NCBI GenBank assembly: GCA_015295945.1
Contig: DVED01000156.1
Coordinates: 1-64,000 of the forward strand
Length of the DNA stretch: 64,000 nt
Reading direction: 5' to 3'
From: Oscillatoriales cyanobacterium M59_W2019_021
GTDB lineage: Bacteria; Cyanobacteriota; Cyanobacteriia; Cyanobacteriales; Geitlerinemataceae
Under the pieces are notes generated by a model that did no database searches, was not told the origin of the DNA, and worked only from the letters and a program-made list of their open reading frames with translations. The translations under genes and the position numbers were made by a program. Below are positions 1 to 200 of this stretch, in pieces; within the stretch, counting starts at the first letter, position 1, and each line of letters starts with the position of its first letter.

Positions 1-58
1 GATCTCCACCTTGGGATTAGGGGATGTAAGTCAGACTGGGTCTGCTATCCCTGCCTGA
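1..58 (+). CDS. tnpB: TnpB (OrfB) of an IS200/IS605-type element, 3' end only
   Basis: Reading from base 2, the first 18 codons give ISTLGLGDVSQTGSAIPA followed by TGA at 56-58. From memory this is the typical C-terminal tail of cyanobacterial IS605-family TnpB (OrfB) proteins, the RNA-guided nucleases carried by these transposons. The rest of the gene lies left of the window, so integrity cannot be judged. The tail is followed directly by a hairpin that fits the right end of such an element, which strengthens the call. It is too short for a catalytic motif to be seen. Confidence 0.62.
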   Translation, partial: ISTLGLGDVSQTGSAIPA

Positions 59-99
59 GTCCTGAATCCCACGTCATTCATGCGTGGGAGTGGATCAAC
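59..99 (+). mobile_element. Right end of an IS200/IS605-type element (candidate omega-RNA end)
   Basis: Just after the TnpB stop there is a stem-loop with arms TCCCACG (67-73) and CGTGGGA (83-89), followed by TCAAC at 95-99. IS200/IS605 elements end in a subterminal hairpin that TnpA recognises, and the TnpB guide RNA is transcribed through this end into flanking DNA. The hairpin is seen directly. The exact cleavage point, and therefore the first base of host DNA, is inferred to lie near 95-100. Confidence 0.5.
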
Positions 100-200
100 G
101 ACTGTCCGCTATCAGAACTGGGAAACCTTTGATTTTGCGATCGTTCTCTCCACAACGGTGGAATGCCGATCGCCCAGTGGTAGATTTTTCCGAAAGCAAA

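What the first reader, a model, noticed from the sequence alone, without database searches (positions are those of the whole stretch)
1..110. Right end of a TnpB (IS200/IS605) element abuts ligA
The first 58 bases translate to a TnpB C-terminal tail, followed by a terminal hairpin (67-89) and TCAAC (95-99). TnpB guide RNAs run through this end, so the bases just past it, about 100-115, would be the current guide. That guide would match the empty site.
Basis: partly seen in the sequence, partly recalled or inferred. Interest (0 to 1): 0.6.

Follow-up and report, generated by a model that had tools for sequence, protein, structure and literature searches.

The report
Right end of a TnpB transposon

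Summary
Confirmed, and ordinary. Window 1-98 is the right end of an IS200/IS605 element of the IS608 type. Bases 2-58 are the last 18 codons and stop of a TnpB. Bases 1-98 also fold as a TnpB guide-RNA scaffold: 14 of 32 pairs change on both sides across 16 sequences, 0 of 500 shuffles reaching this. Twenty relatives share the end and vary from base 99 on; 18 of 20 end in TCAA. The end is therefore base 98, not 99, and the predicted guide starts at 99. The nearest relative has an exact empty site, TTTAC|CTA, in a sister genome, predicting the target motif TTAC, as in IS608. The window starts at a contig edge. Contig pairs in this assembly share 97-99 terminal bases; one pair is itself an IS605-type right end shared for 98 bases up to TCAA. 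Base 1 thus looks like an assembly break 98 bases short of a repeat's end. This copy's tnpB body, tnpA, left end and empty site were not found; RNA and cutting could not be tested.

The parts
2..58 (+). 3' end of tnpB: last 18 codons and stop (TGA 56-58)
   Evidence: Frame; matches TnpB tails of relatives
1..98 (+). Right end / guide-RNA scaffold. Helices in window coordinates: 1-5 with 92-96; 12-17 with 59-64; 20-25 with 47-52; 32-36 with 40-44; 67-77 with 80-89 (74 bulged)
64..67 (+). GAAT at the foot of the right hairpin, same letters as the right guide of IS608
   Evidence: Sequence; GAAT in 14 of 16 rows and AAAT in 2 of 16 of the alignment; IS608 letters from PMC5934647 passages
67..89 (+). 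Terminal hairpin
95..98 (+). TCAA, right cleavage site; the element ends after base 98
99..118 (+). Predicted guide (16-20 nt of flanking DNA)
   Evidence: Inference from the end position and from the ISDra2 reRNA; no other match at 2 or fewer mismatches in the own genome
201..2222 (-). ligA (NAD-dependent DNA ligase), neighbour of the insertion, not part of the element

Best explanation
Window 1-98 is the right end of an IS200/IS605 element of the IS608 type, inserted just 3' of ligA. Shown: TnpB tail, conserved and covarying guide-RNA fold, right hairpin with GAAT at its foot, TCAA end at base 98. Inferred from relatives: a Y1 transposase (TnpA, encoded divergently from tnpB) excises the element as a single strand between TTAC and TCAA and inserts it 3' of TTAC. 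A transcript running through tnpB into the flank yields a guide RNA whose last 16-20 nt are bases 99-114/118. TnpB with that RNA would cut the emptied site (TTAC followed by CGACTGTCCGCTATC...) and so favour its refilling from a sister chromosome.
For: TnpB tail and upstream TnpB in relatives: 15 of 20 loci match P0002 upstream, 9 of 20 have a frame of more than 300 codons. Shared end at base 98. Exact empty site of relative L051 in G037, TTTAC|CTA. Covariation. TnpA (NF033573, 137 bits) and TnpB (NF040570, 227.5 bits) of the relative; TnpB alignment to ISDra2 TnpB keeps the acidic RuvC positions. IS608 letters TTAC, TCAA, GAAT, AAAG (PMC5934647) are all found in the family. Contig start 98 bases before the end, like the pair C18/C24.
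Against: The tnpB body, tnpA and left end of this copy are not in the assembly; it could be a fragment. No second copy of bases 1-99 is in the assembly although the contig break suggests one. The window copy's empty site was not found. In the second sister genome, G066, TTAC is changed at the joint. No RNA evidence.
Confidence: 0.9

Rival explanations
1. A dead relic: a truncated tnpB 3' fragment with its right end, no longer mobile and no longer making a working guide complex.
For: Upstream sequence is missing; the own genome holds a decayed fragment of the family at C163; several relatives are truncated or frame-broken (L016, L017, L038).
Against: The tail frame and all five helices are intact in the window, and the contig break 98 bases before the end fits a longer repeat upstream.
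Confidence: 0.25
2. A transcription terminator or chance hairpin downstream of ligA, unrelated to TnpB.
For: The hairpin alone is weak against shuffles (z -1.74).
Against: Homology over the whole of 1-98 to TnpB right ends, covariation; no T run follows the hairpin, and the only terminator-like site in 1-400 is at 241-265.
Confidence: 0.01

Closest known systems
IS608 (Helicobacter pylori, IS200/IS605 family)
   Same: Right cleavage TCAA, left cleavage/target TTAC, guides GAAT and AAAG 5' of the hairpins (PMC5934647, passages; here)
   Different: Host and sequence differ; relatives show no C preference after the insertion site (A5 T4 C3 G3 of 15)
ISDra2 TnpB and its reRNA (Deinococcus radiodurans; 8h1j, 8bf8)
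   Same: Closest natural TnpB with a solved structure to the family's protein (E 4.4e-44); guide RNA from the right end with a flank-derived guide (PMC8612924, passages)
   Different: ISDra2 uses TTGAT; this family uses TTAC
SfaTnpB
   Same: A studied TnpB with the target motif TTAC, so the predicted motif is not new (PMC12781874, passages)
   Different: Sequence relation to this family was not tested

Membership tests
IS200/IS605 family element (IS608 type) | Right-end hairpin, guide tetranucleotide at its foot and TCAA cleavage site | tested here: met
IS200/IS605 family element (IS608 type) | Insertion 3' of TTAC without target duplication | tested here: inconclusive
   Met for relative L051 by its empty site in G037, and TTAC precedes the left end of L058; not testable for the window copy
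IS200/IS605 family element (IS608 type) | Y1 transposase TnpA in the element | tested here: inconclusive
   Present and divergent in relative L051; the window copy's left part is missing
TnpB RNA-guided nuclease | TnpB protein with RuvC and zinc-ribbon domains | tested here: inconclusive
   Only the 18-codon tail is in the window; the relative's full protein matches NF040570 and ISDra2 TnpB
TnpB RNA-guided nuclease | Structured right-end RNA overlapping the tnpB 3' end | tested here: met
   Covariation
TnpB RNA-guided nuclease | RNA made with a flank-derived guide; guided DNA cutting | not testable with these tools
   Needs RNA reads and a cutting assay

The most novel reading that the evidence does not exclude
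Right ends of this family can move and persist without tnpB, as guide-RNA units of about 92 nt lying between TTAC and TCAA that work with a TnpB encoded elsewhere; the unit at G183 C23 would be one, and the window's end might be another.
Probability: 0.05. Interest if true: 0.5.

Novelty: new member of a known kind. Interest (0 to 1): 0.17.

Why it matters
It adds a cyanobacterial IS608-type TnpB subfamily with an exact right end, a scaffold supported by covariation and a target motif supported by an empty site, all directly usable in a test. It changes no general understanding. It also shows how contig edges can be used to locate the end of a repeat.

Tried and rejected
Own-genome DNA and protein searches for a second copy or the tnpB body found none of this subfamily. 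The 14 genomes of the taxonomic family gave no copy beyond the window's own. Empty site of the window copy: none of 92 ligA loci (80 and 12 of the 13) carries the 99-200 interval or the element tail beyond chance-sized matches. An empty site for G154 (7 genomes of its genus) and for the G183 unit (1 genome, itself) was not found. Plasmid collection: 5 records, of which 4 are distant TnpB tails. Rfam: no match in 1-2300. Literature searches. Rejected: an end at base 99 (TCAAC), because base 99 is variable in relatives. Alignment A1 used the window and 15 of the 20 relatives aligned; L039 (identical to L021) was left out as a duplicate, and L023, L026, L029 and L030 because no TnpB tail frame was seen in them.

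Full report
What was checked. The window is the start of contig C111 (80,309 bases) of a 212-contig, 4.99-Mb genome. Most named relatives of its ligA are cyanobacterial, so the host is taken to be a cyanobacterium. Nothing lies left of base 1 in the assembly.

The observation. Bases 2-58 read ISTLGLGDVSQTGSAIPA-stop (sequence). The hairpin 67-73/83-89 is perfect over 7 pairs, and TCAAC is at 95-99. Searching 388 genomes of the class with bases 1-105 gave matches in 26 genomes, the window's own included. I aligned 20 relative loci at their ends. Nine of the 20 (eight without a duplicate) have a TnpB frame of more than 300 codons that stops 40-60 bases before the end, and 15 of 20 match the relative TnpB P0002 upstream. 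The nearest, L011, ends GISTLGLGDVSQAEPAISA.

Where the end is. BLAST matches of these 20 loci finish at window base 98 or 99 in 19 and at 96 in one. Set in register on base 98, 18 of 20 end TCAA, one TTAA and one TCCA. Over the window and 15 relatives, positions 95-98 are identical in 15-16 of 16 rows and position 99 in 5 of 16. So the end is TCAA| after base 98.

An empty site. For relative L051 (genome G052) I joined the bases left of the putative left end (...TTTAC) to those right of TCAA and searched its genus of three genomes. Both other genomes matched across the joint. G037 has ...GCTTTAC|CTATAG... with no base gained or lost; G066 is more diverged, with one-base gaps near the joint and TTAC changed. 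The G037 site fixes that element's ends as TTAC| ... TCAA|. In L051 and L058 the left hairpin is preceded by AAAG. IS608 is described with left and right cleavage sites TTAC and TCAA and guides AAAG and GAAT (PMC5934647, passages seen). The window has GAAT at 64-67. The same paper reports TTAC followed by C as preferred; the window's base 99 is C, though relatives show no preference (A5 T4 C3 G3 of 15).

The RNA. Consensus folding of the window with 15 relatives gives five helices. Pair counting gives 95.1% paired cells, against 35-49% when slid, 14 of 32 pairs changed on both sides and 36 such cells; none of 500 shuffles reached any of the five measures. The structure was derived from the same alignment, which favours it over the slid versions. 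Three helices lie partly or wholly inside the tnpB frame, as expected of a right-end RNA overlapping the gene. No Rfam family matches.

The rest of the genome. A covariance model found the window, C186:1-98, C163:1747-1845 and two weak matches. C186 and C163 are a second subfamily, also ending TCAA; C163 is a decayed fragment with about 35 tnpB codons. Against the relative's TnpB, no place in the own genome exceeds 35% identity except two short tail fragments of 35-38 residues. The 18 bases from 99 have no other match at two or fewer mismatches; three other sites have three mismatches, and the reversed control pattern gives seven.

Why the contig begins here. I compared 86 contig termini, some of which read N. 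Among the rest, eleven prefix pairs and two adjacent overlaps share 97-99 bases, and five further pairs share 57-81. C18 and C24 start with the same 98 bases, an IS605-type right end by eye, stopping exactly at TCAA, and then diverge. So this assembly tends to break about 98 bases before a repeat's boundary. C111 and C186 both start exactly 98 bases before their TCAA ends. This points to a branch at the element's end and hence to further copies; against it, no second copy of bases 1-99 is in the assembly. The missing body may be in contigs that were dropped or withheld; I could not tell.

How it works. By homology to ISDra2 TnpB (8h1j, E 4.4e-44 for the relative's protein) and its reRNA, whose last 16 or so bases come from flanking DNA (PMC8612924, passages), the guide here would be 99-114/118 and the target the emptied site with TTAC 5' of it. 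A TnpB with a TTAC motif is already in print (PMC12781874, passages). Transcription, guide processing and cutting are inferred, not shown.

Verdict. It is a new member of a known kind, and interest is low.

Noticed in passing
L171 (G183:C23), compared with L170 (G183:C16): A solo right end of 92 nt without tnpB, 97% identical to the right end of a tnpB-bearing copy in the same genome. It starts directly after TTTAC, while in the other copy the same stretch is preceded by an internal TCAA, and it ends in TCAA. It looks like a unit that moved from TCAA to TTAC; no empty site was available.
   Followed up: partly
G000 contigs C18 and C24, first 98 bases (L196, L203): Two contigs start with the same 98-base IS605-type right end ending in TCAA and then diverge: another multi-copy element of this kind in the genome, not matched by the covariance model.
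   Followed up: partly
G000 contigs C25, C29, C30, C35, first 98 bases (L204, L208, L209, L214): Four contigs start with a shared repeat end carrying a strong hairpin and ending in GGTCA: probably the end of another insertion sequence.
   Followed up: no
G154:C70 at 39828 and 142029 (L039, L021): Two copies of the element with identical flanks on both sides about 102 kb apart: a duplicated segment rather than two insertions.
   Followed up: no
L037 (G267:C165), 1500-1618: The terminal hairpin carries an extra insertion of about 20 nt in its loop, the outer stem being kept.
   Followed up: no
G000:C137:14357-14473 (L177): Weak match to the right-end model ending in ATGTCAAG, possibly a decayed right end of a related element.
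   Followed up: no
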